Shown here: positions 951 to 20,500 of the stretch, piece after piece | Layout of the letters: each line of letters begins with the position of its first letter | Position numbering within the stretch: the stretch's first letter is position 1 | NCBI GenBank assembly: GCA_002686195.1 | Contig: NZAS01000139.1 | Location: 1 to 24,109 of the forward strand | Reading direction: 5' to 3' | DNA length: 24,109 nt | DNA from: Candidatus Pacearchaeota archaeon | Lineage (GTDB): Archaea > Nanoarchaeota > Nanoarchaeia > Pacearchaeales > GW2011-AR1 | Notes under the pieces: model-generated | Databases searched by the model: none | Told to the model about the DNA's origin: nothing | The model's input: only the letters and a program-made list of their open reading frames with translations | Made by a program: the position numbers and the translations under genes

Positions 951-1024
951 TGCGGGAGAGTGAAATGGATTACACACCAGGCTCATAACCTGGAGACACT
1001 TGGGTTCGAATCCCTTGTCCCGCA
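951..1024 (+). tRNA. tRNA-Met-like gene (anticodon CAT) with unusual T-arm
   Basis: The acceptor stem is a perfect 7 bp (951-957 TGCGGGA with 1018-1024 TCCCGCA). The D-arm is GTG/CAC (960-962/973-975) with GG in the loop. The anticodon arm is CCAGG/CCTGG (977-981/989-993) with loop CTCATAA, giving anticodon CAT at 984-986. The variable loop is AGACA. The T-loop TTCGAAT is canonical, but the T-arm spans 19 nt instead of 17: three G-C pairs next to the loop, then two opposed T-T mismatches, then a closing C-G. No full CCA is encoded; ACA follows. It lies seven bases after the last helix of the large RNA. It may be a divergent elongator or initiator tRNA-Met, a tRNA-Ile2 candidate if the C is modified, or a decaying copy. 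Confidence 0.55.
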
Positions 1025-1057
1025 ACAAGATTTTATTAACTAACGGCGGAGGATGTT

Positions 1058-2638: not shown

Positions 2639-2845
2639 ATGGCTAAAGTACTAGTTCAAACCTTTGGTGGTGTTGTTAAATCGATGGAAGCAAACACTCC
2701 TGCTGATATAGCAGAGTCTTTGGGACAATCGTTGGATAATACCACAATTAACGTCAATTCTAAAAAGGCTGAAGCCACTACATCTTTACGAGATGATGAT
2801 TTTGTCGCATTCGTAACTGATAAAGTGACTTCTGGCTTAGTATAG
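2639..2845 (+). CDS. Ubiquitin-like (beta-grasp, ThiS/MoaD-like) modifier, 68 aa
   Basis: The predicted order beta (KVLVQTFG), beta (VVKSMEAN), helix (PADIAESLG), beta (TTINVNSKKAEA), then LRDDDFVAFV is that of a minimal beta-grasp fold. The 'L-x-D-D-D/G-x-V' step before the last strand is typical of ThiS/MoaD and prokaryotic Ubls. The C-terminus is DKVTSGLV. It has no terminal GG, but Gly66 is followed by only two residues, so removal of Leu-Val would expose a C-terminal glycine suited to adenylation. The three genes after it encode E2-like, JAMM protease and E1-like proteins, which makes the Ubl assignment much stronger than sequence alone. AGGGGA lies upstream of the ATG. Expected role: modifier conjugated to target lysines. 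It is shorter than ubiquitin (76 aa). Confidence 0.78.
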   Translation: MAKVLVQTFGGVVKSMEANTPADIAESLGQSLDNTTINVNSKKAEATTSLRDDDFVAFVTDKVTSGLV

Positions 2846-2868
2846 TCTAGACGAAAAGATTCGGTCTA

Positions 2869-2890
2869 TGGGGGGTATTTATATCCCCCA
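2869..2890 (+). promoter_or_regulatory. G/C-tract hairpin between Ubl and E2 genes
   Basis: TGGGGG (2869-2874) pairs with CCCCCA (2885-2890), and the stem extends inward through a G-T and T-A/A-T pairs to a short A/T loop. No T-run follows, so it does not look like a complete intrinsic terminator. It sits in the 86-bp gap between the short modifier gene and the large E2 gene. It could stabilise the 3' end of the Ubl message or partly stop transcription, giving more Ubl than enzyme. The E2 ribosome site is 30 bases beyond. Confidence 0.55.
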
Positions 2891-2931
2891 GCCGATGACT
2901 ATAAAATGAAAATAATACGAGGAGGAAAAGA

Positions 2932-4602
2932 ATGGGGAATCAAGCAACAACGACGAATAGTGAGTCAGAGTGGTATAAGCTACAGAATGCTGTAAAAAGA
3001 TGGATACTAAGTAATGCTCATTATCAAGGCGATAGAATGGATAGAACAACTGCTGAGAATACAGCAAATGCTTTTCTTAATAAAGTTCATGTCTATGACA
3101 TTCAGGATGATTTTGAACACAATACAGAGAAAATCTTTAAAGTATATATTGGGCATCCCAAGTTTCGTGGTACTGTTAACTATACTTTACCCGAACATTC
3201 ATTACAGTTTAATAGTGCTCAACCGAGTAATGTAAAAATATTAAACACAGGGAATGACACACCTGAATGGTGGTCTACTATACAAAGTTCTTTTATTAAT
3301 ACAGGACTACATCCTTTATTAAGTTGGGATACAACTAGTATGCATCCGCATATTAATCCAAATGGACAGCCATGTTTAGGTGGCTGGAGTAATGCATGGT
3401 CTTATGCAATTTCATCTGGAGATATCCCATCCTTAATAAATGTAGCTAAGAGTTTTCTTAATACATGGACAAGGGATGATGCATATTGGGACATAAATAG
3501 ACAGTACAGAGATTGGGATAACATATTTAACTATCCACAACGTGGCTTAAGTGAGTTCTTTCCTTTCCAAAAATGCCTTCAACATGCATTTCTTTGGCAA
3601 AGGTTAGCTAGGAATATTGAATCATCATACAGATGGAGTCCTAAGCTTACTTGGAGTTGGTTAGCAAGTAATTATGAAATCATTCAACAATTATGCCATG
3701 AAAATGGTGATGATTACAAATGGAAGATTTATGATTATTATTTAGCTACTATAATAAGTAGTAAGAATACTGCGGATACTGAATCAGGGAAGATGAAGAA
3801 ACTTAATTCTACTATTCACATTTTAGACCGAATGATAACAGGAATTACTGATATATTAACAGAAGAAATTGGATGTGCATATTGGATTTCTAAACGATTG
3901 GTTGGCGATACTATGCTCTATGGTATTGATAAATTGGATTATGGTACAGTAAAACGTATACATTTAGTTCAAGATAGCGATGGTAATTATCCTCCTGGTT
4001 GGAATCTCTCTACTTTAATACAAAGAATGAGTGAATCCTTAAATTCAAGGGCAAGGGAATTGCGACCACAACAAGCTCGTGTTGAAATGATTGATATTGG
4101 AGAAGTATTTGAAACCATGCGTAATGCAAATAGAGGGAAAAGCATCATTAATAGAGGCTTTCTTTCTGAAGAAGATTACTATGTGGTTTTGTTGGATTAC
4201 ATAGGCTATGGACCAAGATGGCATACGGGAACTCGTTCATCTACACAGAATACATTTCACATACTTGAGAACATGTTGACATTTGCATATAATGAAAAAG
4301 TCTGGGATGCAAATGAATTGATAAGGGTTGGAATTGAAATATCTGAAGATGACTATCTTAGTGATAGAAACATGTTAGATGATACAGCACCCTTTGACAA
4401 TATGTTTACTCTTTTCCATAATGTAATTGATGATGAAGAATCGAGGAATAGGATAATATATCATTTTGTATGTCTTGGTATAGAAAGATACACAAAAATC
4501 TGTATGAAACAGTTAAACGGGAGAATGAAAAATGCAAAAGAACACTACAGATGGGAAGAAGAGGTTGTTCAACCTGGGAATCCCAGAACGAATGTTGCAT
4601 AA
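2932..4602 (+). CDS. E2-like ubiquitin-conjugating enzyme with long C-terminal extension, 556 aa
   Basis: Residues about 65-190 fit a UBC/RWD-type E2 core: a beta meander (FKVYIGHPKFRGTVNYTLP), then H138-P139-H140 in MHPHINPNGQPCLGG with candidate catalytic Cys148. The 10-residue distance from His to Cys equals that of eukaryotic E2 enzymes (HPN...C), and a helix follows. E2 accepts activated Ubl from E1 as a thioester and passes it to a target amine. The remaining 365 or so residues are mostly helical, with no family I recognise; they could bind substrate, E1, or replace an E3. The ATG follows GGAGG at 2921-2925. The 3' end overlaps the JAB gene by 71 bp. Gene order Ubl-E2-JAB-E1 resembles bacterial operons described for prokaryotic Ub-like systems (PRTRC and Bil types). 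The E2 assignment rests on motif and context. Confidence 0.8.
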   Translation: MGNQATTTNSESEWYKLQNAVKRWILSNAHYQGDRMDRTTAENTANAFLNKVHVYDIQDDFEHNTEKIFKVYIGHPKFRGTVNYTLPEHSLQFNSAQPSNVKILNTGNDTPEWWSTIQSSFINTGLHPLLSWDTTSMHPHINPNGQPCLGGWSNAWSYAISSGDIPSLINVAKSFLNTWTRDDAYWDINRQYRDWDNIFNYPQRGLSEFFPFQKCLQHAFLWQRLARNIESSYRWSPKLTWSWLASNYEIIQQLCHENGDDYKWKIYDYYLATIISSKNTADTESGKMKKLNSTIHILDRMITGITDILTEEIGCAYWISKRLVGDTMLYGIDKLDYGTVKRIHLVQDSDGNYPPGWNLSTLIQRMSESLNSRARELRPQQARVEMIDIGEVFETMRNANRGKSIINRGFLSEEDYYVVLLDYIGYGPRWHTGTRSSTQNTFHILENMLTFAYNEKVWDANELIRVGIEISEDDYLSDRNMLDDTAPFDNMFTLFHNVIDDEESRNRIIYHFVCLGIERYTKICMKQLNGRMKNAKEHYRWEEEVVQPGNPRTNVA

Positions 4603-5362
4603 AATCAATTATCTATTAGGTCGCTTCAATAATGAAGAGTGGAGCGGACCAGCCTGGTACGAGATAATTGAAACAACAAAAACAGGCTTTCCTAAGAATG
4701 TTGTCTTGAAGTTTTTTAAGGCAATTCACTTAGGGAGTGGTGCTGAAACCGAAATAGATGGTGACAAGATGGGTAAGCTTTTACCCAAAATCTATAAGAA
4801 AATACCTGAATTAAAGGATTATTATCTTGGTTTGATTCACAGTCATCATACTATGGGTGCATTTATCAGTAAGACAGATAAAGAAACAGCACTAGAACAA
4901 GCATCAAAAGACGGAATCTTCTTTTCTACAATAGTAGCAAGTAAGAATGAACGCTTCGAGACATGTCTGACATATAAAGACCAGTTTGGTTTTGACAGAC
5001 TAATTGAAGGGGCAACAGAGCCACTTATCAATGTTGAAATAGATAAGAGTTGGCAAGCTGAGGCTAATTACATTCAGAAAATGAAGAAGAAACAAGATGC
5101 AAAGAAACCCACTACATCTTATTACAATGGTTTTGGTCACCTTAATTCAGTTGGAGGATATGGTCATTATAACTATGGAGTGAGTAAATATAGTGGAGGT
5201 ACTAAGGCAGATTGGGATATAATGGAAGAGCTAATTGAAAGCTATGAAATGAATAAGATTACTTATCATGAATTACTTGAAAAGGCTAAGAAGAAATGTC
5301 CTAATATGGATATACACCTCTGGGTGGATAATCCTAATCAACAAGCTATTGGATTAGTTTAA
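4532..5362 (+). CDS. JAMM/JAB-domain metalloprotease (Ubl-processing isopeptidase), 276 aa
   Basis: A full JAMM signature is present: E36 in NEEWSG, then H103-S104-H105, S113 and D116 (HSH-x7-S-x2-D). This coordinates catalytic zinc in Rpn11, CSN5 and bacterial JAB proteases. The domain covers about residues 10-160. The C-terminal part has a Tyr/Gly-rich linker (about 190-225: YYNGFGHLNSVGGYGHYNYG) and an acidic helical tail. Expected role: trim the two residues after Gly66 of the Ubl and reverse conjugation. The start at ATG 4532 follows GGGAG (4519-4523). A start at 4592 would lose the first beta strand (RLFNLGIPERML), so the earlier one is better. It overlaps the E2 gene by 71 bp in another frame, implying co-translation. 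Confidence 0.88.
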   Translation: MQKNTTDGKKRLFNLGIPERMLHKINYLLGRFNNEEWSGPAWYEIIETTKTGFPKNVVLKFFKAIHLGSGAETEIDGDKMGKLLPKIYKKIPELKDYYLGLIHSHHTMGAFISKTDKETALEQASKDGIFFSTIVASKNERFETCLTYKDQFGFDRLIEGATEPLINVEIDKSWQAEANYIQKMKKKQDAKKPTTSYYNGFGHLNSVGGYGHYNYGVSKYSGGTKADWDIMEELIESYEMNKITYHELLEKAKKKCPNMDIHLWVDNPNQQAIGLV

Positions 5363-5367
5363 ACTAC

Positions 5368-5455
5368 AAAGGGGGCATAAGCATGCACACACTCCGCTTG
5401 TTGCCCTGGCTATTATCAATGTGGGGATTGGAAATAGCCCAGGATTGCCCCCTTT
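5368..5455 (+). ncRNA. Structured RNA element between JAB and E1 genes
   Basis: Perfect 10-bp closing stem: 5368-5377 (AAAGGGGGCA) with 5446-5455 (TGCCCCCTTT). Inside lies a 10-bp stem, 5405-5414 with 5433-5443, with one bulged base (C5438). Inside that is CAAT/ATTG (5417-5420/5427-5430), closing a GTGGGG loop. No T-tract follows. The three-tier fold suggests a cis-regulatory RNA, a processing or stability element, or a small RNA separating expression of JAB from E1. A 26-codon ORF (ATG 5383 to TGA 5463) runs through it with GGGGG upstream, but it is probably incidental. Confidence 0.6.
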
Positions 5456-5458
5456 ACC

Positions 5459-5496
5459 TTTGAGAGACTAATAAAATTAGTTTAATTAGTTTAATT
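5459..5496 (+). promoter_or_regulatory. Possible promoter with tandem 9-bp repeats upstream of E1
   Basis: After the RNA element the gap turns very AT-rich. TTGAGA (5459-5464) and TTTAAT (5481-5486) are separated by 16 bases, a weak sigma70-like pair. From 5475 the unit TTTAATTAG is repeated in tandem (about 2.3 copies, to 5496), as an operator might be. The E1 ATG is 40 bp further, behind AAGGAAA. AT-rich DNA yields such boxes by chance, so this is only a candidate second promoter for E1 and the replication cassette. Confidence 0.25.
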
Positions 5497-5535
5497 CTGA
5501 GTTTAAAAAACTTATAAAATAAAGGAAACATACTG

Positions 5536-6303
5536 ATGGACAGTAGATTCTTAAGAAACAAAGACCTAATACCTCAAGAATGCTTAGATGTAATAAGTAT
5601 TATAGGATTAGGCGGGATTGGTTCATTCTTAGTACAGGGATTAGCCATGATGGGATGGAAAGATGTACATGGATATGATAGCGATGATGTAGAGAATCAT
5701 AATTTTAGTACAACCTGTTATCCACTTAATACAGAAAATATTGTAATGAAGAGGGTAGCGGCTCATTCATTATTTGATAGTTATTCTGATGAAACCCAGG
5801 AGTTTCATCCATATGAACATTTTATTGGAGGTGCTCAGTTTTCAGAATTAACTACTAAGGTGATTGTCTGTACTGATGATATGGAATCAAGAAGGATGGT
5901 TTATAATAATTGGAAAATGTTTAAAGAAAGAGAGTTCCTTATAGACCTTAGAATGGGTGCTACAAGCGTGGAAATCGTTACCGTAACAAAGGATAATGAT
6001 AATTATATGGATACATGGGTTCCGACTCATACTGTACCACCAGAACCATGTTCACAGAAACATACTGTATTTGCAACAATGCATATTGTTTCCTTAGGAC
6101 TGTCTCAAGTGTATAATCTTGTTGCAAACATAGCGTATTATGACTATATTTGGACTAGCCTGAGCCCAAATATTGTCGAATTTGGTACTCTAGTAACTCC
6201 AAATCTAAATAAGGAGGTATCACATGATACAGGTACGCAAAGTATCAACGGATTGGAAAGCAATGCCTTCCGGTCTGACATATCTTATAATAGGTCAGCC
6301 TAA
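5536..6303 (+). CDS. ThiF/E1-like Ubl-activating enzyme, 255 aa
   Basis: A Rossmann nucleotide-binding motif GLGGIGS spans residues 24-30. D48/D50-D51-V-E-N-H-N56 matches the second ThiF/MoeB/E1 motif, and CTDDMESRR (112-120) matches the Mg-ATP Asp and its partner Arg. C172 in PPEPCSQKHT is the likely catalytic cysteine that forms the Ubl thioester. The usual Arg of the 'NxxRQ' motif is absent (NFSTT here), a notable change. Length fits single-domain bacterial E1s, which work as homodimers. The reaction would be adenylation of the Ubl C-terminal glycine, then transfer to C172 and on to E2 Cys148. The last 80 bp overlap the start of the ATPase gene. Confidence 0.87.
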   Translation: MDSRFLRNKDLIPQECLDVISIIGLGGIGSFLVQGLAMMGWKDVHGYDSDDVENHNFSTTCYPLNTENIVMKRVAAHSLFDSYSDETQEFHPYEHFIGGAQFSELTTKVIVCTDDMESRRMVYNNWKMFKEREFLIDLRMGATSVEIVTVTKDNDNYMDTWVPTHTVPPEPCSQKHTVFATMHIVSLGLSQVYNLVANIAYYDYIWTSLSPNIVEFGTLVTPNLNKEVSHDTGTQSINGLESNAFRSDISYNRSA

Positions 6304-7084
6304 AACTGGGAAAACCACAGCCACTTCAAGGTGGAGTACAAAGGGTCAAGATGGTGTCATATTACTTGATGCTGACCTTGGCTCTGACTTTGTTGATGGA
6401 GCTAATACTATAGCTATTAGTGGCTTAAATCAACCAACAAGACCTGTAATGCATAAAGGCAAGCAGGTAACAGATAAAGGTATACCTAAAACTGAAGTTA
6501 TTCCACCCGAAGAACGGGGTTTCAATCATCGCTCCGGTGCTGATAAAGGAACCCCGTTGCCAGCTTATTCAATGGCAGAAGTCTATGGATGGCTAAATAC
6601 AGAGTGGGATAAACTTCCATATGATACTATAGTGATAGATACTGTTGGTCAGATTAACGAATGGATTGAACATTCTGTTATTCATGAACTCGGTATCACA
6701 GCTATGGGAGAGGGTCAATGGGGAGCCGATTGGGGCAAAGCTAGACGTAGAAATCTAGATATTGTCAAACGGTTTCAGGCTCTCATCAAAAAGAAGGGTG
6801 GAAATCTTGTTTTAGTAAGTCATTCAAAGACTTCACAATTACAAGATGGGAAGGTGCAACTAGCACCTGAACTTCCAAGAGGACTCGGTTATTCATTAGC
6901 GGCTAAAGCTGATATAATCGGGTACACTACAGCATCAAAGGAAGATGGTAAATACTATATATCATTTGAAGCTTATGATGAAAGGGTTGTAGGCAGTCGC
7001 TTAAAGCCTCTTTCTCAAAAGGTTTTATTATTTGATTATGAAGTAATATCATCTGAAATCCTTAACTACAAGGAGGAAAAGTGA
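6224..7084 (+). CDS. Sak4-like / AAA_24 phage recombination ATPase, 286 aa
   Basis: The Walker A motif G24-QPKTGKT-31 lies near the N-terminus, as in the phage AAA_24 (Sak4-type RecA-like) family. A Walker B strand ends IVID139, and a later strand with NLVLVSHSK resembles the sensor region. These ATPases anneal single-stranded DNA for phage recombination together with an SSB. The start at ATG 6224 is fixed by AAGGAGG ten bases upstream, inside the 3' end of the E1 gene, so the two genes overlap by 80 bp and are likely co-expressed. The 3' end overlaps the next gene by 4 bp (GTGA). Length is near the family norm. Confidence 0.8.
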   Translation: MIQVRKVSTDWKAMPSGLTYLIIGQPKTGKTTATSRWSTKGQDGVILLDADLGSDFVDGANTIAISGLNQPTRPVMHKGKQVTDKGIPKTEVIPPEERGFNHRSGADKGTPLPAYSMAEVYGWLNTEWDKLPYDTIVIDTVGQINEWIEHSVIHELGITAMGEGQWGADWGKARRRNLDIVKRFQALIKKKGGNLVLVSHSKTSQLQDGKVQLAPELPRGLGYSLAAKADIIGYTTASKEDGKYYISFEAYDERVVGSRLKPLSQKVLLFDYEVISSEILNYKEEK

Positions 7085-7692
7085 GTAATACTCGTTTTCG
7101 CCCTGATGACCTACAGTTATCCGGTAGCGGTAAAAGCTGGATAGGTTTTCAAAAAGTAGGGATTGTCGATTGGGAAGACCGAGCAGACCAATTTGATTGG
7201 GCTGACGTCTACCTAGTTGCTACTCTTAAACAAGAAGATTCGCAGTATCCAATAGAGATGAAACTTGCGGGTTCTTATGATAGAGAAACAAATGGCAACA
7301 TTAAAACCTGTACACTATTGAAAAGACTTTATTGGCTTTTTGATACTATAGGCTTTGACGGCGGTCCTGATATTGGTGGTACTATGGTAGATGCAGATGG
7401 TGAGGAGTTAAATCTCGTTAATCATCTTAATCAAAATCATGTTACTAATCCATTAGACCCTAAATTGGAGTATATAGCATACATTTACAAAGAGAAGGGT
7501 TATAAAGACCCGTCTAAATTGTATAATGCTGTATTTCCTAAGTTGGTTCCAAACACTCCTAAGGGTTTAAAAGACATCGAGGGCTACATAGCCTTTATGA
7601 AGTCTAAGAACCTTATTAAGGAGGTCATAGAACAGCCGACTCCTACTAATGGAGTCAACACAGCATCTACAGAGGGAACTACTAGTTTCTAA
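7081..7692 (+). CDS. SSB-like or recombination-accessory protein, 203 aa
   Basis: The start is GTG 7081 behind AAGGAGG, in a GTGA overlap with the Sak4-like gene. Residues about 20-75 are rich in beta strands with aromatics (SWIGFQKVGIVDW, DVYLVATLKQ), then a helical middle, then a flexible Pro/Thr/Ser tail from about residue 185 ending in TTSF. Phage Sak4 and primase genes are often paired with an SSB, and a folded beta domain plus flexible tail would suit that. However, the tail lacks the acidic tip of classic SSBs, and I do not recognise a family motif. The stop overlaps the next ATG (TAATG). Confidence 0.55.
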   Translation: MSNTRFRPDDLQLSGSGKSWIGFQKVGIVDWEDRADQFDWADVYLVATLKQEDSQYPIEMKLAGSYDRETNGNIKTCTLLKRLYWLFDTIGFDGGPDIGGTMVDADGEELNLVNHLNQNHVTNPLDPKLEYIAYIYKEKGYKDPSKLYNAVFPKLVPNTPKGLKDIEGYIAFMKSKNLIKEVIEQPTPTNGVNTASTEGTTSF

Positions 7693-9482
7693 TGTATGTT
7701 GAAATAGCAATCGGGAGTCCCTCTAAACGGGGGACTCTCGTTTCTATAAATGATGTATGGGATATCGTATTTGAAAGTGGAGAGAAAGATGCTGTTTACA
7801 CATCTGTATATCAATATGATGAAGAAGCTGTAAACTATATAAATAAGAAGGGTACGCTTAAAAAGTTTGTTGGAACTAGACATATTAATTCAATACCTAT
7901 TGATATTGATAAGGGTCAAAATTCAAATGAATATACCCTGTCTCAAGCACAAACCATTTTATATCATCTACAATCTGAATTAGGATTGAAAGATGGAAAT
8001 TTTGCAATATTCTTTAGTGGTACGGGATACCACATTGAAATAAGTAATGAATGTTTTGGCTTTAGACCAGGAGCTACCCTTCCTTTTATGGTTAAGCAGA
8101 CAATGGTAAATAATGTCTTACCCAATTTCAGAATAGATGGGAGTGTCTATAGTAGGACTTCTATCATACGCCTTCCACATACATTAAACAAAAAATCAAA
8201 ACTGTATAAAGTTCCTCTTACAATAGATGAGCTTTTTGGAGATGTTAATACTATCCTTGAATTAGCTAAGGATAGAAGACTGTCATTTGGTCAACATGAC
8301 CTATGGGGAGATGGTAGTCTTGAACACTTAATAGACACTGATGTGCCTGATATTAGGACAATGAAACATGTTTCAGAGCCTAACAATGTTGTACCATGTA
8401 TACAAACTATTTACAATAATGGACCGCAACAAGGTACTAGGAATAATGTATTATTAAGAATAGCATCTCATTTTAAAAGACATGGCATACCAAGTGATGC
8501 CACTAAAGCATCCTTGCTTGCTTGGAATGATAACCAACTCGAACCAGAGATAGTTATGGAAAAGGTCGAATCCACATATAACTATGGATATCAATATGGA
8601 TGCCATGATACAATTTTAAAATCAGTTTGTAACCCTAAGTGCATTTACTATAAGAACAAGAGTTATTTAGTAGATGTTAAAACAACACGGGATTTACAGA
8701 AAGACTTAGAAGAAAGGCTTACATCTGATTTTACAGGTAGAATGATTAACCTGGCACAAATGTTTGGTCTTTATGATAAGGATTGTGATATATATCCTGG
8801 TGAGCTAGTAACAATATTTGGTCCTACTGGAGCAAATAAAACAACATTGGCTCAAAATATTGTCCTTGGATATGATTTCCACAATGATACAATTAATACA
8901 GATTGGCACATGCCAACGCTATATCTTTCATTAGAACTTAGTGGATGGTACATGCACCGTAGAAATCAACAGATTGTTAGCGGTCTTTCAAAGGAGGAGG
9001 TAACGGGGAATAATAAGTATGTCTCTAAAAAGTATAATAGCTATTTAGAGCATGTTAATATTCAAACAATCTCACCAACAACTGAAATGATTTTGAAACA
9101 GGTAAGAGAACTTCAGCCCAATCTTATGGTCATAGATTACATTGACTTAATAGATGCTGGAAAATCTTACAGAGGAGAATATGAACAAGTTCGAAATATA
9201 AGTCACTTTCTATCTAATCTAGCAGTTAATCTAGATATCATTATTATACAGATATCTCAGGTTTCAAGAGAATATTCAAGGAATCAAATACTTGATATTT
9301 ATGCTGGTAAAGGTAGCGGTGCTATAGAGAACGCATCAAGAAAGGTAATAGGAATTAACGGTACTCAAGATGACCCAACAAAGAAAGTGTCTTTATTTAA
9401 GAATAGCGACGGTGACTTATTTGATGTAGACCTTGAATGGACACCTTCATTCAGATTACCAGTAAGGAGAACAGAAGCATGA
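7692..9482 (+). CDS. Primase-helicase fusion (AEP primase + DnaB/RecA-like ATPase), 596 aa
   Basis: The N-terminal half has archaeo-eukaryotic primase motifs: D71-I-D73 (metal site), S109-GTGYH-114, and D149...R160-LPHTLNKK, the third motif. A Cys cluster (C304, C313, C317) links to a C-terminal RecA-fold helicase with Walker A GPTGANKT (377-384), Walker B VIDYIDLI (480-487) and a DnaB-like IIIQISQVSRE strand (517-527). Such fusions synthesise primers and unwind DNA at the phage fork. The Walker A has Asn where Gly usually precedes the Lys. The start in TAATG implies coupling to the gene before; the end overlaps the next gene by 4 bp (ATGA). Confidence 0.85.
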   Translation: MYVEIAIGSPSKRGTLVSINDVWDIVFESGEKDAVYTSVYQYDEEAVNYINKKGTLKKFVGTRHINSIPIDIDKGQNSNEYTLSQAQTILYHLQSELGLKDGNFAIFFSGTGYHIEISNECFGFRPGATLPFMVKQTMVNNVLPNFRIDGSVYSRTSIIRLPHTLNKKSKLYKVPLTIDELFGDVNTILELAKDRRLSFGQHDLWGDGSLEHLIDTDVPDIRTMKHVSEPNNVVPCIQTIYNNGPQQGTRNNVLLRIASHFKRHGIPSDATKASLLAWNDNQLEPEIVMEKVESTYNYGYQYGCHDTILKSVCNPKCIYYKNKSYLVDVKTTRDLQKDLEERLTSDFTGRMINLAQMFGLYDKDCDIYPGELVTIFGPTGANKTTLAQNIVLGYDFHNDTINTDWHMPTLYLSLELSGWYMHRRNQQIVSGLSKEEVTGNNKYVSKKYNSYLEHVNIQTISPTTEMILKQVRELQPNLMVIDYIDLIDAGKSYRGEYEQVRNISHFLSNLAVNLDIIIIQISQVSREYSRNQILDIYAGKGSGAIENASRKVIGINGTQDDPTKKVSLFKNSDGDLFDVDLEWTPSFRLPVRRTEA

Positions 9483-9766
9483 AAAAGCATGTTGTAAAAA
9501 CAGAGGTTTCTTTAGATACGAAGATGGCACTGATGAATATTGCTCAAAAAGAAAAACGTAGTATGCGAAAACAACTGGAATATATAATTGAACAGTTTAT
9601 TAAATCGCAAATTATGGTCGAAAGTATTTCTGGTAGCAAACCAAAAGCATGGAAAGGACCTTTGTCGACTAGTTTAAAACAAGCATTAAGAAGTAAAGGA
9701 TGGGATATTCCTAAGGTAGAAGCTTTACTGAAAGAGAAAGAAGACGATGCAGAAATTGACAACTAA
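9479..9766 (+). CDS. Ribbon-helix-helix-like DNA-binding protein, 95 aa
   Basis: I choose ATG 9479 (AAGGAG at 9463-9468, ATGA overlap with the primase-helicase stop) over an earlier in-frame ATG at 9437 lying inside that gene. Residues 3-40 read KHVVKTEVSLDTKMALMNIAQKEKRSM..., the strand-helix-helix order of Arc/CopG-type regulators ('VsLd...alA...sm...l'). The C-terminal half is basic and helical. Likely a small transcription regulator or DNA-binding accessory of the replication genes. Confidence 0.7.
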   Translation: MKKHVVKTEVSLDTKMALMNIAQKEKRSMRKQLEYIIEQFIKSQIMVESISGSKPKAWKGPLSTSLKQALRSKGWDIPKVEALLKEKEDDAEIDN

Positions 9767-10271
9767 AGAACTTATAGGCGAGTACATAGACCTTCAGGTT
9801 CAATTAGAACAGGAATTGGAGGATAAAGAACCAATAGAAGATGCACTAGAAAATGTTAATGGTCAGATTAAACGCAAAGTCGATAACATAGATGTATTTA
9901 TGGTGGGTATTGAAAGAAAAACCCATATGATAGATGCTGAGATTCTAGCTTTGAGCGATGAAATAAAGAGACTAAAGGTAAGGAGAAAAGCTACAGCGTC
10001 ATTAAAGAAATACTTTAATGAAACTCTTATACCTATGGTTATAGAAGAAGTTGGAAGAAACGGTGTTTATGAAACGAATACAGCTAGATACAAGTTATTT
10101 GAAACTTTCGGACCAGTAATAGTATCTGATGAAGATGCTGTTCCAGATGAATACAAGAAAGTAGAGATGGTAGAATCTCTAGATAAGAAAAAGGCTCGTA
10201 AAGACCTTACTTCTGGTGTAGATATACCAGGTTTCTTTATTCAGAAGGTAAAGCGAGTAAGGAGGTCTTAA
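9747..10271 (+). CDS. Gp157-like (Sipho_Gp157) coiled-coil phage protein, 174 aa
   Basis: The layout fits the Sipho_Gp157 family: a long N-terminal helix (residues about 5-115) with the typical pattern of repeated Ile/Lys spacing and 'EI-x-x-L-KVRRKA...LKKYF' near 70-92, then a short beta region (TARYKLFETFGPVIVSD), 'VPDEYKK', the conserved late 'DKKKARKDLTSG' and 'IPGFFI'. The family occurs in phage replication/recombination clusters and was first linked to phage resistance in Streptococcus thermophilus; its biochemical role is not settled. It overlaps the RHH gene by 20 bp. The stop TAA overlaps the next ATG. Confidence 0.8.
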   Translation: MQKLTTKELIGEYIDLQVQLEQELEDKEPIEDALENVNGQIKRKVDNIDVFMVGIERKTHMIDAEILALSDEIKRLKVRRKATASLKKYFNETLIPMVIEEVGRNGVYETNTARYKLFETFGPVIVSDEDAVPDEYKKVEMVESLDKKKARKDLTSGVDIPGFFIQKVKRVRRS

Positions 10272-10722: not shown

Positions 10723-11163
10723 ATGAAGCTAGATAAAAAACAATTTAAAAATGTGCTTGAACCCATACATAAACACTTTTGGGAGAAAGCATATAAAAAA
10801 CTTTCTGCAAAGATGAGTGTACTATACAGCAGTCTAAAGAGAAGAAGTGAAGAATATGATGTAGCTTTTTCAATAGAAAGAGACGAAATAAGAAAAATGT
10901 TCTATAGCTCTTATGGTGATGATTGTAAATATTGTGAGAAAAGGCTCACTTATAAAACCATAGCATGTGACCATATAGTCCCACTATCTAAAAAAGGAGA
11001 AACTTCTGTAAAGAATCTCCAATTAATTTGCAAAACTTGTAATACAAGAAAGGGTCCTCTAGATGAAGAGGACTTTAATATGCTCATTCAGCTAGTACAG
11101 GAGCTTCCTGCTGAAATAAGAGTATACGTAATGAAGAAGCTCGCTAAGGGAGGACGTTACTAA
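10723..11163 (+). CDS. HNH endonuclease, 146 aa
   Basis: Residues 60-111 hold the HNH signature: C68-x2-C71, D83-H84 in ACDHIVPLSK, N98 in KNLQLIC, C103-x2-C106, N107, K110-G111. The four cysteines form the structural zinc site of the McrA-like HNH subfamily, and H84 is the general base. Such proteins nick or cut DNA, serving as homing endonucleases or packaging/replication nickases. ATG 10723 has no Shine-Dalgarno, unlike its neighbours; translation may be weak or depend on the upstream hairpin. The weak site and the separate hairpin-bounded unit hint at a mobile insertion. The stop overlaps the next ATG (TAATG). Confidence 0.85.
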   Translation: MKLDKKQFKNVLEPIHKHFWEKAYKKLSAKMSVLYSSLKRRSEEYDVAFSIERDEIRKMFYSSYGDDCKYCEKRLTYKTIACDHIVPLSKKGETSVKNLQLICKTCNTRKGPLDEEDFNMLIQLVQELPAEIRVYVMKKLAKGGRY

Positions 11164-14442: not shown

Positions 14443-14587
14443 TCTCTTCTTCTATACTAGTTACCATGGCTCCACCTATCTTATTAGATGTGACCATATT
14501 CTCTTTTCTCTTAACACAGCAATCACATATACCATCTTCATTCATAGTAGGGCAATCACATTCGTGACAATGAAAAGGCATAGGCAT
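14420..14587 (-). CDS. Small Cys-rich protein, 55 aa
   Basis: This ORF fills the gap between the giant gene and the 493-aa gene. Its ATG (14587-14585) shares one base with the giant gene's TAA stop, and its 3' end overlaps the next start by 23 bp. The N-terminal 24 residues carry six Cys and two His (H6, C7, H8, C10, C12, C21, C23, C24 in FHCHECDCP...GICDCC), a likely zinc or metal-binding knuckle. The rest is acidic. The ribosome site is weak (ACGGATA), so coupling to the giant gene is probable. Unknown family. Confidence 0.6.
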   Translation of the reverse strand: MPMPFHCHECDCPTMNEDGICDCCVKRKENMVTSNKIGGAMVTSIEEENEPEESD

Positions 14588-17500
14588 TATCCGTAAATAA
14601 ACTTTCCACCGAGACGCTCATCCCGGTCTTTCTTTACTAAGTCAGCTATTTGCATTACTGGCATACCCGTAAACTTTGCTATTGCATAATATGGATTCTC
14701 AACTGCTCCACCAGGACCAACAACATCTCTTATCAGTCTCCCAAATGGCGGTATAGTCCATAAATAATAGTCAGTTAATTTACTATAATCATCTGTCATC
14801 ATTCCTTTAAATAGCGGAGGAAGTAACCTAAAAGCTGGAGGAACTACAGCCTGTACAGGACCAAGTGGAGAACCATAAAAGGCTCTCTCTTTTTCCTTAT
14901 CATCACCCATTAATAAGTCTGCTGTATCTTGGAACCAGTTCCACGGAGCTGGAAGTGCGTTTTCGAACAAGCTGTACATAAACAAAGAAGACATAGCAAG
15001 CATAAAAGCATCTGCCTGTGCCATACGCTTAAATCTCTCAAACTCAGGAGTCCCTTCTTGAAAACCATGAATATGAGCTTCTCTTATTGTATCGTTACGA
15101 AAACGCACTGAGTTCCAACTCCATAATTGGAACCTAGAAAACACCCTACCCAGTGTGCTATTAGTCCATATAGGTCTAAATGGTGCGCTATATAAAAACT
15201 GAGTTCCTTTTACGCCTTTTTTAGCCATTTGTATAAGGAACGGATTGTCAAAATCTTTAATTGCTCCACCAAATCTTTCTTTTGCCATTAAGTAATGAGA
15301 CATAAAAGCATCTCTTCTAAGCATACGCTCTGGTAAGCGCATAAACGATGCCGCAAAATTCCAAGCTGTATCAGTAACGCCATATTTCTTTCTAAGCTGA
15401 TTTAAGCTTGTATCGGAAAGCTCTGGGTCTCTTTTTATTTTCTTAACAACATCTTTTACAAAGTCATCATATCTTTTAGACTTAATCTTAGGATTGAGAC
15501 CAGCCTCATATATTAGAAATTCCTCTATAATACCCAGCTCATTAATCCATTGCTCCACATCCTTCATACTCTTCCATTTAGGATTAATATGTGTCTGCAA
15601 GTATTCAAAGTTTCTTGCATTTTTAAGGTTCTTTGTACCAGCGCTAATCCAAGTATGTACAGTACCACCATACAGATTAGCTATAGAACTCTTAGGATGG
15701 GCAAGTAATGATGCTAACTGCCACTTAGCCTCTAAGGCACCCCAAGCCTGGAGCTGACTATACTCAACCCCACTTAGTTCATCTAATGTGGTCTCATCTA
15801 AGTTCCACTTTTCTAATTCTTTCCTACCAACACCAAGTCTTTTACCTATATAATCAATACGTTTCTTTGCCTGAGAATCAGCAAGCCATTTATATGGAGT
15901 CCCTTTTATCTTCATGAGGGGGTCATTCATAACGCTCTCTGGTATATGGGCTGGATAACCCATCATAGATTGAGTATATAGTTTAAAAAAGTTCGTCCAA
16001 CGATGAGTAAGTTCAGCATCCTTAGTCCTCTTATAGAACTTCTCATTAAAACTATGCATGGATACTCTACTAGCTAACTGAGCTACCTGCTTATTAAATG
16101 TGTCTATGATATTTTTCATATACTGGTCATAAGCCTCTGGCTCTCTTGACCATCCACCTATATGAGCATTGCGACTAAATTGATTACCCACACGCTTTAA
16201 ATCACTCATCAAGATATTCTTGGCTTTCTCTTTCCTGCCCAATGCCTGTTCTTTTAAAGCATCTTGAATAGCATCAAAGTTCTCAGTCATATCATCCTTA
16301 GCCATAAAATCACCAGTAAGCTGTTTATACTGATACATAAGCTTGCGTATTTCAGCCTGTTTTTCTTCTTTTGTGATATTTGGGTCACTAAATATATGTT
16401 CAATAACCTTCTTCAATCTTGAGTCTGCTACTTTCCTGTCAAAAGAAACATGGGGAAAATAGACATCAAATGGGAACTCACCAGTAACATCAAAAGGAGT
16501 AACCTCTAATTTCTTAGAGACCTTAGCCCATTCATTCCTAGTCATAAGTTTCCCGGGTGTAAGACTTAATAAAACCCTTTTAGTAATCTGTCTAAGTCCA
16601 TCTATACCGAACTTTTCAATAGGAATCTGCTCATGTTTCCTGCCTGTATCTATAAGATATTTCATAAACTCTTTCCGAAGATTCTGTAGGCTCTTAAAAC
16701 TTTCCTTGCCATTCTTATCACGGCCCTTAGCTAACCAGCTTTCAACAAACTCAGTATCACCAACAAGCCATTTATGGACATCAGTGTTCTGTTTTGTTAT
16801 TTGGTCATTTATAGCCCTTACAATCTCATCACCAGACATTAAACGTGTTTCCTCTTCCATAGGAACACGATACATCTTATTTTTCAGCTCATTATATTTT
16901 CCCTCAACCTCTTTCCAATTATTTTCATACTCCATCTCATAAAAAGTAAGCCTATGGTGGTTATCCTTATATTTTTTCCTTAGTACCCTTGGTATCATTC
17001 GTCTTTCTCGCATAGCTACAGCAATATCAAATAAAGCATCACCATCCTCAACAGCAGAAACAAAAGGTCTCAGATTTTCTTTCATCTTATCTTTCTCTTG
17101 TTCATGTTTCTGCATGGAATATTCCTGTCCACGAACAGCCCATTGTTGTAACTCACCCAATAGACCAGTTGGTCTCCGTATTTCACCCATAATAGTATTA
17201 CCAAGCCTATCTTTATATGGACCCACATCCTTTACCCATTCAACCATACCAGGCTCTCTCATTAGGTTTCTATCTATAGCTTCAGGAAACATCCAGTAAT
17301 AGCTACGCATTATATCAGGATTTTTATCTTTGCCAACCATCCAATCCATAGCCTTTCTAAACCAGGTGCCACTACGCATTTCTTTTAAATAATTATCAAG
17401 TAGTTTTAGGTCATACTTAGTGGCCTGGTTCATGTTCTTGCCTACAATACCACGAAACAACCCGTTAATATTACGAGCATCAAGATTGTGATAATGTTCG

Positions 17501-20500
17501 AGGTGGTCCTTGATGGAAAAGTAAACTTCTTTAAGCTCAGGGTCGGTAACCTTACCTCTATGGATACCTTCAAATGGGGCAATGTTTTCAAGGTAGGTTC
17601 TGTCTGCTTCTGAAAGGTCAGATGTCTCAATCATCTCTCCTTTTATAAGATTCCCATTCTCATCTCTAAAACTAGTAACTTTTTTCTTGCCTGTATATTC
17701 CTTCATAACAAGCTCTATTTCAGCATCAGAAAGGTCTGTCTTTGTCTTACTAAGAAGGGAATCATAATCGTCGAAAAACTTTTTCAGATTCTTATCTGCC
17801 ACTGCTTTTGAGTTCATAGCCGCTCTCATAAGTGATGTATTATTTGCCTGTTTCTCCAGGGTCTCTAACAGTATAGCCTCGCCTCTACTCAAATGCCCTT
17901 TCTTTTTGAGCTTGGCTATCGTGTCTAGATGTCCTCTTTGGAACGTACTTAAAAATAATACATCAAATAAATCTTTTTCAGATTGGGGTCGCCCTTTTTT
18001 CCACTCTCGTATCTTTGTATCTATTCTAACCTGGTCAAGTTTTGCTGTCCCCTTGTCCTCTATCCCAAAATTATCACGCTGTAACTCTTCAAACTTCTTA
18101 TTTGATTCTTGCTCATCAAAAGAACTGTCCTTTATAAGGTCGTCTTTATCTCGCCTTCTTCTAGCCATTTGAACGGTCATATCTTTGATTACTTCAGAAA
18201 CCTTATGAGTTTCAGTAATCAATTCCTTAGAATAACCATTCTTTTTTATTAAGTCAGTTAGAGTCTTAAGAGACGCCATGTCGCTTATATCATTGACCAA
18301 GAACTCCTCAGCTTTCAGTACCATCCTATCTAAATAGTTACGTCTATAGTCATAGTTGCCAGTATTAGTTGGCTTTAGGTCATACGGAACCTCGCCCATA
18401 ACATAGATTTTCTCTCCCTTCTTATTGATGAAAGACTCATCCCTAAACTTTATAAATGCATCCTCATCTTTTGCAATCTTCTCAAGACCCTCCCTGGTAT
18501 GTAATCTATTAGTAAATATCCTATCTATAAACTTACCCCAAGGCGTTGAAATGGACGTTCTACCAAGTACTTCCTTCAACCATTCATTCTGTTCGGCAAA
18601 ATCTCTATTCTGACTATATAAAACCTCTAATCTCTTATGGTCTACATGCCTAAATATGTTATCGCTCCAATTAACATCTTTCATGCTTTCTGATAACATA
18701 GACATTAAAGTATTTCTAGATGACTCAGACAGAAAAGTCATAGCGTCTAATCCAGAGCGTATTTCGGGGTAAGAGTGCGCTCTTCCCTCTATATAATTCT
18801 TACCATAAAGAACGCTATTTGTCTTGAAAAACAACCTATGTAATCCTTTGCCCTTTAAAAAATCCATCTTCCCATCATTAACCATCTTAGTAAGCCTAGG
18901 ATTTACCACAGATGTTTTGCCACGCATATCACGAACCTCATAACTAAACAAGGTATCAAGAACCTTTGATGAGAATACATCTACGCCTTTTAATCCTGCT
19001 TCATCCATTGGGTCAGAACCAAGAGCAATAGTTGCCCGAGACATTTCTCTAAATCTTTGTAAATCTTTTTCTCCGGTCTTAGCTTTAAATACAATCCTAT
19101 AGGTACGCCCCTTCATTACAAACGGAACGCTATAAGAATCTTTACCAAGCACAATACTTGCAGTCCGTGGTTTACCATCTTTATCCAATACATCCCTGCC
19201 CTTAGACTCTAAAACTATCTCTTTCATAGCTACCTTAGGTCCATCATGCCCTCTAATGGCGTTATATGCCCCTATAACAGCCGCTCTATTCGTAACGGCG
19301 AACCCAAGCATGTCTCTGCCACTTGATGCCCCCTCAGACATAAATCCTCGCCAATAAGGGCTATATTGAGATACTATATGAGAACCCTCATTCCTAATAT
19401 CTGGACTATCAACAGCAAGTTGAGACCTATACGATGTTTTAGTATCGGGGTCAATAGCCTCTTTATTGTGTTTTTCCTGGTTTTTAGCCTTATCAACATA
19501 TTCATCCCGCTGAGAATGATACATCTCTCGCCACTTCTGCCTAAACCCAACATCCTCACCACCAAAGAATATAAAAGCCTTATCACCGTCTAAATCAGCA
19601 CCACCAAGTGCTTTCATTGTTCTGGGATGTAATAAAGAACCAAAGCCCTTTACACCAGTAAACCCCTGAAAACGAAGACTATTTGCGCCACTAATAGAAT
19701 CCATAGGCACTCTCATAACAGTACCGTGTAATACTTGTTCTATAGCATCCTGGTTGCCTTTGTATTTTCCAGCTTGGTAATCTTCCCATATTTCACCAAG
19801 GGTGTTTCTCCCCTTTATAATAATAGAATCATTTATCCTAAGGGACTTAAACCCATCATCAAGGAAAAAGATATCATCCTCGTTCCTAAGCCTAGACGTT
19901 TCTTTATTCGGATGTCGTAGACCTATTTCCCAGGGTCTCATCCTTGAGGTGGCGCTATTTTCAAGCTTTGGTCTTGTTAATTGAGTTACAACAAAATTAC
20001 GCATAGCAGTCATGCGATAATCCCTGGAGAATTTATGTAGATAGGCTCCCATAGAGCCTTCTGGATATAGTTTAGACAGCCTTTCAATTATTGTTTCAAA
20101 CTCAGCATTTATCTCGCTTTCCCTTGACAGCTCATCCCTTGACAACTCTCCTTCTTCAGCAAGAGATTCAATATGCTCTCTATTTAATCTTAGAATCTTC
20201 TCATAAGCCTTAGTAGAGAACTTCTCATACTTAGGATTACGCATCATTTCAAGTAATTTCTGAACGGGTATATCTTCAATATTATCAACAAGATTGGTAA
20301 TGTTTTCATCAGACATATTCTCGGTAAATTTCTTTACATATTCTCTACCCTTCTCAGTCCCATTAAAAGCTCTATTAGAAAGCTCTTCATACATCTCCTT
20401 TATAGTATTTGGGTCAACATCCTTAAATCCATATGCGCTAAGAGTAGAAAACATTTGCTTAGGCAATCTCTGATTCTTTATATACTTATCGCTCGTAATC

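What the first reader, a model, noticed from the sequence alone, without database searches (positions are those of the whole stretch)
2639..6303. Complete ubiquitin-like conjugation system in a phage genome: Ubl, E2, JAMM protease and E1
Four consecutive plus-strand genes encode a 68-aa beta-grasp Ubl, an E2-like protein with HPH and Cys148 exactly ten residues apart as in eukaryotic E2s, a JAMM protease with a full E...HSH-x7-S-x2-D site, and a ThiF/E1 protein with GLGGIGS and candidate Cys172. Established: bacteria carry such sets (PRTRC cassettes, Bil operons, 6A/6B-type systems). Here the set sits inside a phage replication region with no CBASS cyclase, no ParB-type gene and no E3, so it is likely a distinct phage-borne version. 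Possible roles: tagging replication or host proteins, blocking defence, or modifying the virion.
Basis: partly seen in the sequence, partly recalled or inferred. Interest (0 to 1): 0.95.

Follow-up and report, generated by a model that had tools for sequence, protein, structure and literature searches.

The report
Phage ubiquitin-like protein-tagging operon
A marine phage carries four neighbouring genes, with a same-order counterpart in many other phages including cultured ones of human gut bacteria, that likely form a complete ubiquitin-like system predicted to attach a small protein tag to other proteins during infection, a kind of control known mainly from cells rather than from the replication genes of phages.

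Summary
Observation confirmed and enlarged. Window 2639-6303 holds four + strand genes: a 68-aa beta-grasp Ubl, a 556-aa E2-like protein, a JAMM peptidase and a ThiF/E1. In marine virus contigs with at least 3.5 kb before the E1, all four genes in this order are found in 59 of 59 (clade 1, redundant loci) and 35 of 36 (clade 2). Key residues barely vary: Ubl Ser-Gly, E2 HPH plus Cys148, JAMM E/HSH/S/D, E1 Cys172. A divergent, syntenic counterpart (JAMM and E1 clearly homologous; E2 and Ubl by motif and position) lies in cultured crAss-like phages (crAss001, DAC15) and Flavobacterium phage FpV4. There the Ubl carries a long tail after K-[VI]-x-S-G; in cr106_1 an endonuclease gene separates Ubl and tail two residues after that glycine, as expected if the mature Ubl ends there. 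The cassette sits among replication genes. Most likely mechanism (inferred): JAMM trims pro-Ubl, E1 activates it, E2 transfers it to a replication-linked or host protein, JAMM removes it. Conjugation, target and benefit are untested; the E2 fold rests on motif plus weak structural matches. My literature searches found no description. New variant of a known kind, unusually testable because cultured phages carry it.

The parts
2639..2845 (+). Ubl: 68-aa ubiquitin-like modifier precursor
2834..2836 (+). Ubl Gly66, predicted mature C-terminus (KVTSG), followed by 2 extra residues (LV)
   Evidence: S-G in 28 of 28 distinct marine clade-1 Ubls; tails of 0-3 residues in these 28
2932..4602 (+). E2-like protein: UBC-like region (about residues 54-200) plus long, fast-changing helical C-terminal part
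3343..3351 (+). E2 HPH motif (residues 138-140)
   Evidence: 39 of 40 distinct homologues; the exception is a cut contig
3373..3375 (+). E2 Cys148, predicted catalytic cysteine
   Evidence: 40 of 40 distinct homologues; aligned with the Cys of UBE2W HPHVYSNGHICL in a weak match (E 0.34)
4532..5362 (+). JAMM/JAB metallopeptidase; start overlaps E2 end by 71 nt
   Evidence: Prok-JAB E 3.1e-4, below cut-off; active site conserved
4637..4639 (+). JAMM Glu36 (EWSG)
   Evidence: 39 of 40; the exception is a cut contig
4838..4879 (+). JAMM H103-S-H105 ... S113 ... D116 zinc site
   Evidence: 40 of 40
5536..6303 (+). E1-like ThiF-family adenylating enzyme
   Evidence: ThiF 34.8 bits vs cut-off 28.1; PDB profile hits PaaA, NEDD8 E1, UBA5, UBA6, MccB
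5605..5625 (+). E1 GLGGIGS nucleotide-binding loop
   Evidence: G24, G26, G27, I28, G29, S30 each 41 of 41
6049..6051 (+). E1 Cys172, predicted thioester cysteine (PCSxKH)
   Evidence: 41 of 41 marine clade 1; aligned Cys in 72 of 73 crAss-type E1s, a gap in one 172-aa sequence
6224..7084 (+). Sak4-like single-strand annealing ATPase, overlapping E1 by 80 nt; syntenic partner
   Evidence: phrog_124 1.4e-23; after E1 in 36 of 36 marine clade-1 and 47 of 52 clade-2 loci with >=3.2 kb downstream
7081..7692 (+). 203-aa conserved protein (SSB by position only, a guess); syntenic partner
   Evidence: 36 of 36 and 52 of 52 such loci; no Pfam hit
7692..9482 (+). primase/DnaB-like helicase; syntenic partner
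   Evidence: phrog_19 1.2e-27; 36 of 36 and 52 of 52 such loci

Best explanation
Four adjacent phage genes encode a predicted ubiquitin-like modifier (Ubl), an E2-like protein, a JAMM peptidase and an E1-like enzyme, and together they likely attach the modifier to, and remove it from, proteins linked to phage DNA replication. Shown here: gene order, conserved catalytic residues, a predicted beta-grasp Ubl, placement among replication genes, and a syntenic module with homologous JAMM and E1 in cultured crAss-like phages. Inferred: (1) JAMM cuts pro-Ubl after the Ser-Gly, removing a tail of 0-10 residues in most marine Ubls or 53-217 in crAss-like ones; (2) E1 adenylates the freed glycine and takes it on Cys172 as a thioester; (3) it passes to E2 Cys148; (4) the fast-evolving helical part of the E2 chooses the target, in place of an E3; (5) the Ubl is joined to a lysine or N-terminus of a replication-linked phage or host protein; (6) JAMM reverses this. 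Steps 1-3 are the firmer part (my estimate 0.8); a replication-linked target is the weakest (about 0.4).
For: Order Ubl-E2-JAMM-E1: among loci with at least 3.5 kb before the E1 all four genes in order in 59 of 59 (marine clade 1; redundant, several loci per contig), 35 of 36 (clade 2) and 69 of 71 (crAss type). Ten of ten named records inspected carry it. Catalytic residues, clade 1. Clade 2: E2 HxH..C 38 of 38 (6 E2s added by position), JAMM HxHx7SxxD 50 of 50, E1 C[ST]xK[HQ] 50 of 51 (the miss keeps the Cys). crAss type: E2 Cys column 70 of 71 and E1 Cys column 72 of 73, each exception a gap. Homology between clades (hhalign, single comparisons): JAMM clade 1 to crAss 8.7e-25, E1 3.9e-27; E2 clade 1 to 2 1.5e-20, Ubl 6.2e-24. 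Ubl fold. Maturation site: S-G 28 of 28 by column; K[VI]xSG 26 of 27 in clade 2 and 63 of 69 in crAss type; in cr106_1 the Ubl stops at KKIKSG+KF, an HNH gene follows, then the tail as its own ORF. JAMM constraint: group I intron hits (RF00028) at the break of JAMM genes split at the HSH codons in L184 and L197; genes split in or just after the motif in L204 and L208. Purifying selection, window vs L001: E2 dN 0.020/dS 0.081, JAMM 0.018/0.109, E1 0.017/0.091. Replication context; named crAss-type records: primase and uracil-DNA glycosylase nearby in 9 of 10, DAC15 being annotated only 'hypothetical'.
Confidence: 0.7

Rival explanations
1. Counter-defence: the phage Ubl is likely joined to, or occupies, host immune proteins, perhaps bacterial Ubl, CBASS or Bil-type systems, and blocks them. 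The enzymes are the same; only the target differs.
For: Bacterial relatives with these enzyme types act in anti-phage defence (recalled; Bil passage and its reference titles). The E2 C-terminal part evolves fast (18% mean identity vs 43% for residues 54-200), as for a part that follows a changing target.
Against: In the marine clades the cassette is a fixed neighbour of replication genes (36 of 36, and 47 to 52 of 52 loci), not a patchy accessory gene; the Ubl is strongly conserved (81% mean column identity in 13 clade-1 Ubls), which is unusual for counter-defence proteins (recalled).
Confidence: 0.17
2. Sulfur carrier: the Ubl is a ThiS/TtuB-like sulfur donor charged by the E1, likely for a phage nucleic-acid or cofactor modification, with JAMM trimming it.
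Against: An E2-like gene is part of 59 of 59, 36 of 36 and 70 of 71 loci with 3.5 kb before the E1, with the Cys kept wherever the column is covered; no rhodanese, thiolase or sulfur-pathway gene among the neighbours searched or annotated; the Ubl ends in S-G, not the G-G usual in sulfur carriers (recalled).
Confidence: 0.07
3. Virion or assembly role like lambda tail proteins I and K, where a Ubl and a JAB domain act in tail assembly without conjugation.
For: Phage Ubl + JAB pairs are known in lambdoid and T1-like tails (Iyer 2006, passages read).
Against: That pair is described without E1 or E2 and in tail gene clusters; here E1 and E2 are fixed and the neighbours are replication genes.
Confidence: 0.04
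4. Non-covalent complex: the four proteins assemble without isopeptide transfer, the E2-like protein being a scaffold.
For: Weak UBC fold match, no E3, HxH missing in 5 of 71 crAss-type E2s; some bacterial E2-like domains are inactive (Iyer 2006, section 14).
Against: Those inactive E2-like domains lack the cysteine; here it is kept: 40 of 40, 38 of 38 by pattern, 70 of 71 with one gap.
Confidence: 0.06

Closest known systems
Bacterial E1-E2-JAB-Ubl operon types 6a-6e (Iyer, Burroughs, Aravind 2006, PMC1779556; passages and section 14 read)
   Same: Related activities in one predicted operon; small Ubl with C-terminal glycine (6d); E1 without rhodanese.
   Different: 6a-6c have E2-E1 fusions, 6a with JAB too; 6d E2s lack the upstream His; 6e E2-like domains lack the Cys. 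Here all four are separate genes, the E2 has HPH before Cys, and the set sits among phage replication genes.
Bil system (BilA-D; passage in PMC11354881)
   Same: Separate Ubl, E2, JAMM-type DUB and E1 genes; the DUB processes the Ubl precursor.
   Different: BilA has two Ubl domains, here one; Bil is bacterial, this is phage-borne. crAss001 E1 scores only 21.1 bits with PADLOC BilD.
CBASS type II Cap2/Cap3 and 6A-MBL
   Same: E1, E2 and JAMM chemistry; Cap2 is a PDB profile hit of the crAss-type E1.
   Different: Cap2 is an E1-E2 fusion acting with a cyclase (recalled); here E1 and E2 are separate, there is a dedicated Ubl, and no cyclase among the genes searched.
PRTRC system (ThiF, PRTRC_A, B, C)
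   Same: Ubl, E2-like, JAB and ThiF genes together (recalled); the PRTRC_ThiF model matches 19 of 20 clade-1 E1s below its cut-off (best E 1.8e-8).
   Different: Window E1 10.4 bits vs cut-off 144.75, JAMM 12 vs 101.8; no ParB-type gene among the window proteins searched, which leave out most small ORFs.
Lambda tail assembly proteins I (Ubl) and K (JAB)
   Same: Phage Ubl with a C-terminal extension plus a JAB peptidase.
   Different: No E1 or E2 described; tail module.
Archaeal SAMP2/JAMM1
   Different: No dedicated E2 in that system (recalled); cellular.

Membership tests
ThiF/E1 superfamily | ThiF domain with GxGGxG loop | tested here: met
   34.8 bits vs cut-off 28.1; loop glycines 41 of 41
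Ubl-type E1 (thioester forming) | Conserved candidate catalytic cysteine | tested here: met
   Cys172 41 of 41; 72 of 73 in crAss type, one gap. The chemistry itself is not tested
Ubl-type E1 (thioester forming) | Canonical adenylation arginine in NxxR | tested here: inconclusive
   Sequences show S/T or G at that place; which residue is canonical is recalled, and no structural superposition was made
E2/UBC | HPN/HPH-like motif and Cys ten residues after its first His | tested here: met
   39 of 40 and 40 of 40; aligned with UBE2W, weakly. In the crAss-type counterpart HxH..C in 65 of 71 with other spacing
E2/UBC | UBC fold | tested here: inconclusive
JAMM/JAB metallopeptidase | E...HxH-x7-S-x2-D zinc site | tested here: met
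   39-40 of 40; 50 of 50 in clade 2, 63 of 72 in crAss type; profile hit to CSN5 E 3.8e-4 for the crAss set
Ubiquitin-like beta-grasp modifier | Beta-grasp fold | tested here: met
   AF2 model and VIA matches; predicted structure only, marine Ubl only
Ubiquitin-like beta-grasp modifier | C-terminal glycine, exposed or by processing | tested here: met
   S-G 28 of 28; K[VI]xSG 26 of 27 and 63 of 69; 47 of 51 database Ubls; processing not shown
PRTRC system | Members above NCBIfam cut-offs | tested here: not met
   ThiF 10.4 vs 144.75 bits, PRTRC_A 12 vs 101.8
Bil system | Ubl with two beta-grasp domains | tested here: not met
   68 aa, one domain; BilA description from a PMC11354881 passage
CBASS type II / 6A-6B | E1-E2 fusion | tested here: not met
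   E1 and E2 are separate genes
Iyer type 6d | E2 lacking the upstream His, with a downstream one | tested here: not met
   HPH upstream of Cys; definition
Covalent protein conjugation system | Ubl-substrate adducts | not testable with these tools
   Needs biochemistry or mass spectrometry

The most novel reading that the evidence does not exclude
Tailed phages own an ancient ubiquitin-like conjugation pathway kept with their replication genes, shared by marine phages, crAss-like gut phages, Flavobacterium phages and some jumbo phages, whose tag, cut free at Ser-Gly by its own JAMM protease and aimed by an E2 that doubles as ligase, regulates replication proteins; it would be a viral ubiquitin system not borrowed from a known bacterial one.
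Probability: 0.45. Interest if true: 0.93.

Novelty: new variant of a known kind. Interest (0 to 1): 0.87.

Why it matters
Ubiquitin-like conjugation in prokaryotes has been studied mostly as bacterial defence or sulfur chemistry (recalled). A self-contained set among the replication genes of phages, with a pro-Ubl, a dedicated protease and an E2 family that Pfam does not recognise, would mean that phages run their own protein-tagging control. It re-annotates four conserved genes of crAss-like phages (called the most abundant viruses of the human gut in the abstract of PMC10172136, seen in the listing), now named hypothetical, metalloprotease or thiamine biosynthesis protein, and cultured members (crAss001, DAC15) make it testable at once. 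It also adds a distinct branch for studying how E1-E2-Ubl-JAMM systems arose.

Tried and rejected
Rejected or without result. (1) tblastn of the window's own E2 and E1 in INPHARED: no match; divergent relatives (L085, L082, P0179) opened the crAss link. (2) Pfam, NCBIfam and PADLOC for the E2: nothing relevant. (3) Bacterial homologues: two E1 scans of genome contigs confirmed no relative, nor did one tblastn of plasmids; the scans use short patterns and could miss distant ones, so phage-only is not proven. (4) Whole-profile comparison of marine and crAss-type E2 and Ubl: not significant. (5) Foldseek of the E2 model in PDB and BFVD: no nameable significant hit (BFVD best an unnamed viral protein, E 9.4e-4). 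(6) A clade-1 E2 (L082) against named phages: no match. (7) A conserved C-terminal motif that I thought I saw in crAss-type Ubl tails is in only 16 of 69, so dropped. (8) Sulfur-carrier and virion readings: see rivals. (9) Literature: ten paper runs ran; term look-ups in the main text of eight papers on crAss-like or jumbo phages or phage proteins and one on polyvalent proteins found no description of such a system; two hold the word ubiquitin in other senses. Main texts only, as passages; supplements and most subscription papers were not available, so prior mention elsewhere is possible. A deposited record already names one gene 'E1 enzyme family protein'.

Rows dropped before counts: identical sequences and lengths under 60/400/200/200 aa (ORFs cut by contig ends were kept there if long enough); identical and cut ORFs (with 6 clade-2 E2s added by position). 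Of 217 confirmed clade-2 loci only the best 80 were kept by the tool, and of 86 crAss-type ones the best 80, 77 distinct; of 374 E1 proteins 120 were listed. Several loci come from one contig (e.g. L002, L005, L039, L058), and L181, L182, L201 and L255 have the record lengths of crAss001, cr106_1, DAC15 and Fpv3, so locus counts are not independent. crAss-type misses of simple patterns (E2 6 of 71, JAMM HxH 9 of 72, E1 11 of 73) were looked at: the E1 misses keep the Cys save one 172-aa sequence; the E2 misses keep the Cys save one, but five have no HxH; five JAMM misses start late (four inspected are genes split in two ORFs, L230 not inspected further); four JAMM misses (L247, L249, L251, L256) were left unresolved. 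Loci with 3.5 kb before the E1 that lack a gene: L167 (Ubl), L241 (E2, Ubl), L245 (Ubl). In 'SG' anywhere in the crAss-type Ubl was met by 69 of 69, but that test is weak in a long protein and I do not rely on it.

Full report
What is there. The four ORFs are at the stated coordinates. The 255-aa protein is a ThiF/E1-family enzyme by Pfam; the 276-aa protein matches Prok-JAB and the 68-aa protein TGS/ThiS below the curated cut-offs; the 556-aa protein has no relevant family hit. The window is a 24,109-base IMG/VR virus record. Right after the E1 come a Sak4-like annealing protein, a 203-aa conserved protein and a primase/DnaB-like helicase.

It is conserved. Searching IMG/VR with the window's E1 gave 36 loci. 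Of 38 records examined (37 loci and the window), 24 have all four genes in the order Ubl-E2-JAMM-E1; in the other 14 the first cassette gene detected starts within 556 nt of the contig's end. Wider searches with alignments gave 31 E2 loci, 41 Ubl loci and 374 E1 proteins, 120 of them listed. Counting only loci with at least 3.5 kb before the E1, all four genes are there in order in 59 of 59 marine clade-1 loci (redundant: some contigs were fetched several times), 35 of 36 clade-2 loci and 69 of 71 crAss-type loci. Over distinct clade-1 sequences the predicted catalytic residues hardly vary: E2 Cys148 40 of 40, HPH 39 of 40, JAMM zinc site 39-40 of 40, E1 Cys172 41 of 41, Ubl Ser65-Gly66 28 of 28; the two exceptions are contigs cut before the residue. 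Near relatives show dN below dS in E2, JAMM and E1; the Ubl has too few changes to tell.

The wider family. Divergent marine E1s match E1s of named phages: crAss001, DAC15, crAssBcn isolates, Flavobacterium phage FpV4, bajarodcaudo virus 1, Dulem virus 41. The ten records inspected have, in this order, a Ubl-like gene, a 371-444 aa protein with HSH and a later Cys, a JAMM protein (overlapping it in 9 of 10 as annotated), and the E1. JAMM and E1 are clear homologues of the window's (hhalign 8.7e-25 and 3.9e-27, the latter aligning the predicted catalytic cysteines). E2 and Ubl are too divergent for a clear profile match across this gap. With deeper alignments E2 clade 2 to crAss gives 3.9e-4, E2 clade 1 to crAss 0.008, Ubl 1.1e-3 and 2.1e-3, the Ubl alignments running to the shared S-G end. 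That link therefore rests on position plus motif. A second marine clade bridges part of it: its E2 and Ubl match the window's clade at 1.5e-20 and 6.2e-24. In the crAss type the E2 pattern HxH..C is met in 65 of 71, with no HxH at all in five, while the Cys column is kept in 70 of 71.

How the Ubl is made. The Ubl ends as K-[VI]-x-S-G in 26 of 27 of marine clade 2 and carries it in 63 of 69 of the crAss type. After it come 0-3 residues in 28 clade-1 Ubls, 0-10 in clade 2, and 53-217 in the crAss type, save one with 2. Among 51 database Ubls four lack the S-G and look cut or frameshifted, and one has a tail of about 24 residues. The crAss-type exception with 2 is cr106_1: the Ubl is a free 92-aa protein ending KKIKSGKF; an HNH endonuclease gene follows, then a 130-aa ORF resembling the tail (its IMG/VR copy is L182). 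So the Ubl stays intact when separated from its tail just after the glycine, as expected if that glycine is the mature end. A JAMM protease beside it is the natural processing enzyme (inference; Iyer 2006 proposed the same for lambda I and K). The JAMM site is under strong constraint: group I intron hits (RF00028) lie at the break of genes split at the HSH codons in L184 and L197, and L204 and L208 are split in or just after the motif with other ORFs between; that such introns favour conserved sites of important genes is recalled.

A possible jumbo-phage relative. Xanthomonas phage PhiXhv-12 has an E1 relative preceded by an 892-aa protein with HPH...CLG and Cys-rich ends, and before it a 140-aa protein ending Ser-Gly-Gly; no Prok-JAB match at E <= 1 was found in that genome. 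If real, a Ubl already ending in GG without a protease fits the processing idea. This rests on motifs alone.

Function. Among loci with at least 3.2 kb after the E1, the Sak4-like gene is present in 36 of 36 marine clade-1 and 47 of 52 clade-2 loci, and the primase-helicase in 36 of 36 and 52 of 52; none of the 80 crAss-type loci has homologues of these window neighbours. In named crAss-type records the cassette lies between DNA primase and uracil-DNA glycosylase genes in 8 of 10; FpV4 has both upstream and exonuclease VIII downstream; DAC15 is annotated only as hypothetical. Two different replication blocks thus hold the same kind of cassette. I commit to a conjugation system acting on replication-linked proteins; the chemistry is likely (about 0.8), the target much less sure (about 0.4). 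Rivals are counter-defence, sulfur transfer, virion assembly and a non-covalent complex.

Comparison. It works like bacterial Ubl systems of Iyer types 6a-6e and Bil, but fits none: separate genes, HPH before Cys, a single-domain Ubl, E1 and JAMM far below PRTRC cut-offs. PADLOC models match only the E1 core, and the JAMM weakly. No relative was confirmed in GTDB representative genomes (two pattern scans) or PLSDB plasmids (one tblastn). I found no description of it in the papers searched (searches; look-ups); supplements and most subscription papers were out of reach.

Limits. All is computational. Locus counts include redundant contigs. The hosts of the marine phages are unknown.

Noticed in passing
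L184 4663-4922, L197 5307-5519; L204 4649-5829, L208 3800-5667: JAMM genes of crAss-like loci are split at or just after the HSH codons, with group I intron hits (RF00028) at the break in L184 and L197 and other ORFs between the halves in L204 and L208.
   Followed up: partly
L098 677-1880 (cr106_1): An HNH endonuclease ORF lies between the Ubl, ending SG+KF, and its tail, encoded as a separate ORF.
   Followed up: yes
L006 4789-5226 and 12 more of 17 clade-1 loci looked at: A conserved ORF of about 145 aa (MMTVPQKKYFC...) lies between JAMM and E1; absent from the window, L001, L003, and from L030 and L035, which were also looked at. Function unknown.
   Followed up: no
L077 2908-3051, L078, L079, L081: The conserved last ~47 residues of the JAMM protein are encoded by a separate overlapping ORF, suggesting a separable module.
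   Followed up: no
window 14587-23304 (-): 2905-aa ORF without any Pfam hit, next to a 493-aa ORF also without Pfam hit.
   Followed up: no
window 9747-10271 and 10723-11163: Sipho_Gp157 family protein (homologues in 32 of 36 and 45 of 52 loci) and an HNH/endonuclease-VII-like nuclease (29 of 36 and 43 of 52) follow the primase-helicase.
   Followed up: partly
L100 1736-5612 (Xanthomonas phage PhiXhv-12): Possible JAMM-less Ubl (ends SGG)-E2 (892 aa, HPH...CLG, Cys-rich ends)-E1 set in a jumbo phage; near-identical 892-aa protein in Erwinia phage Ep032.
   Followed up: partly
window 951-1026: tRNA-Met (CAT) gene upstream of the early gene block.
   Followed up: no
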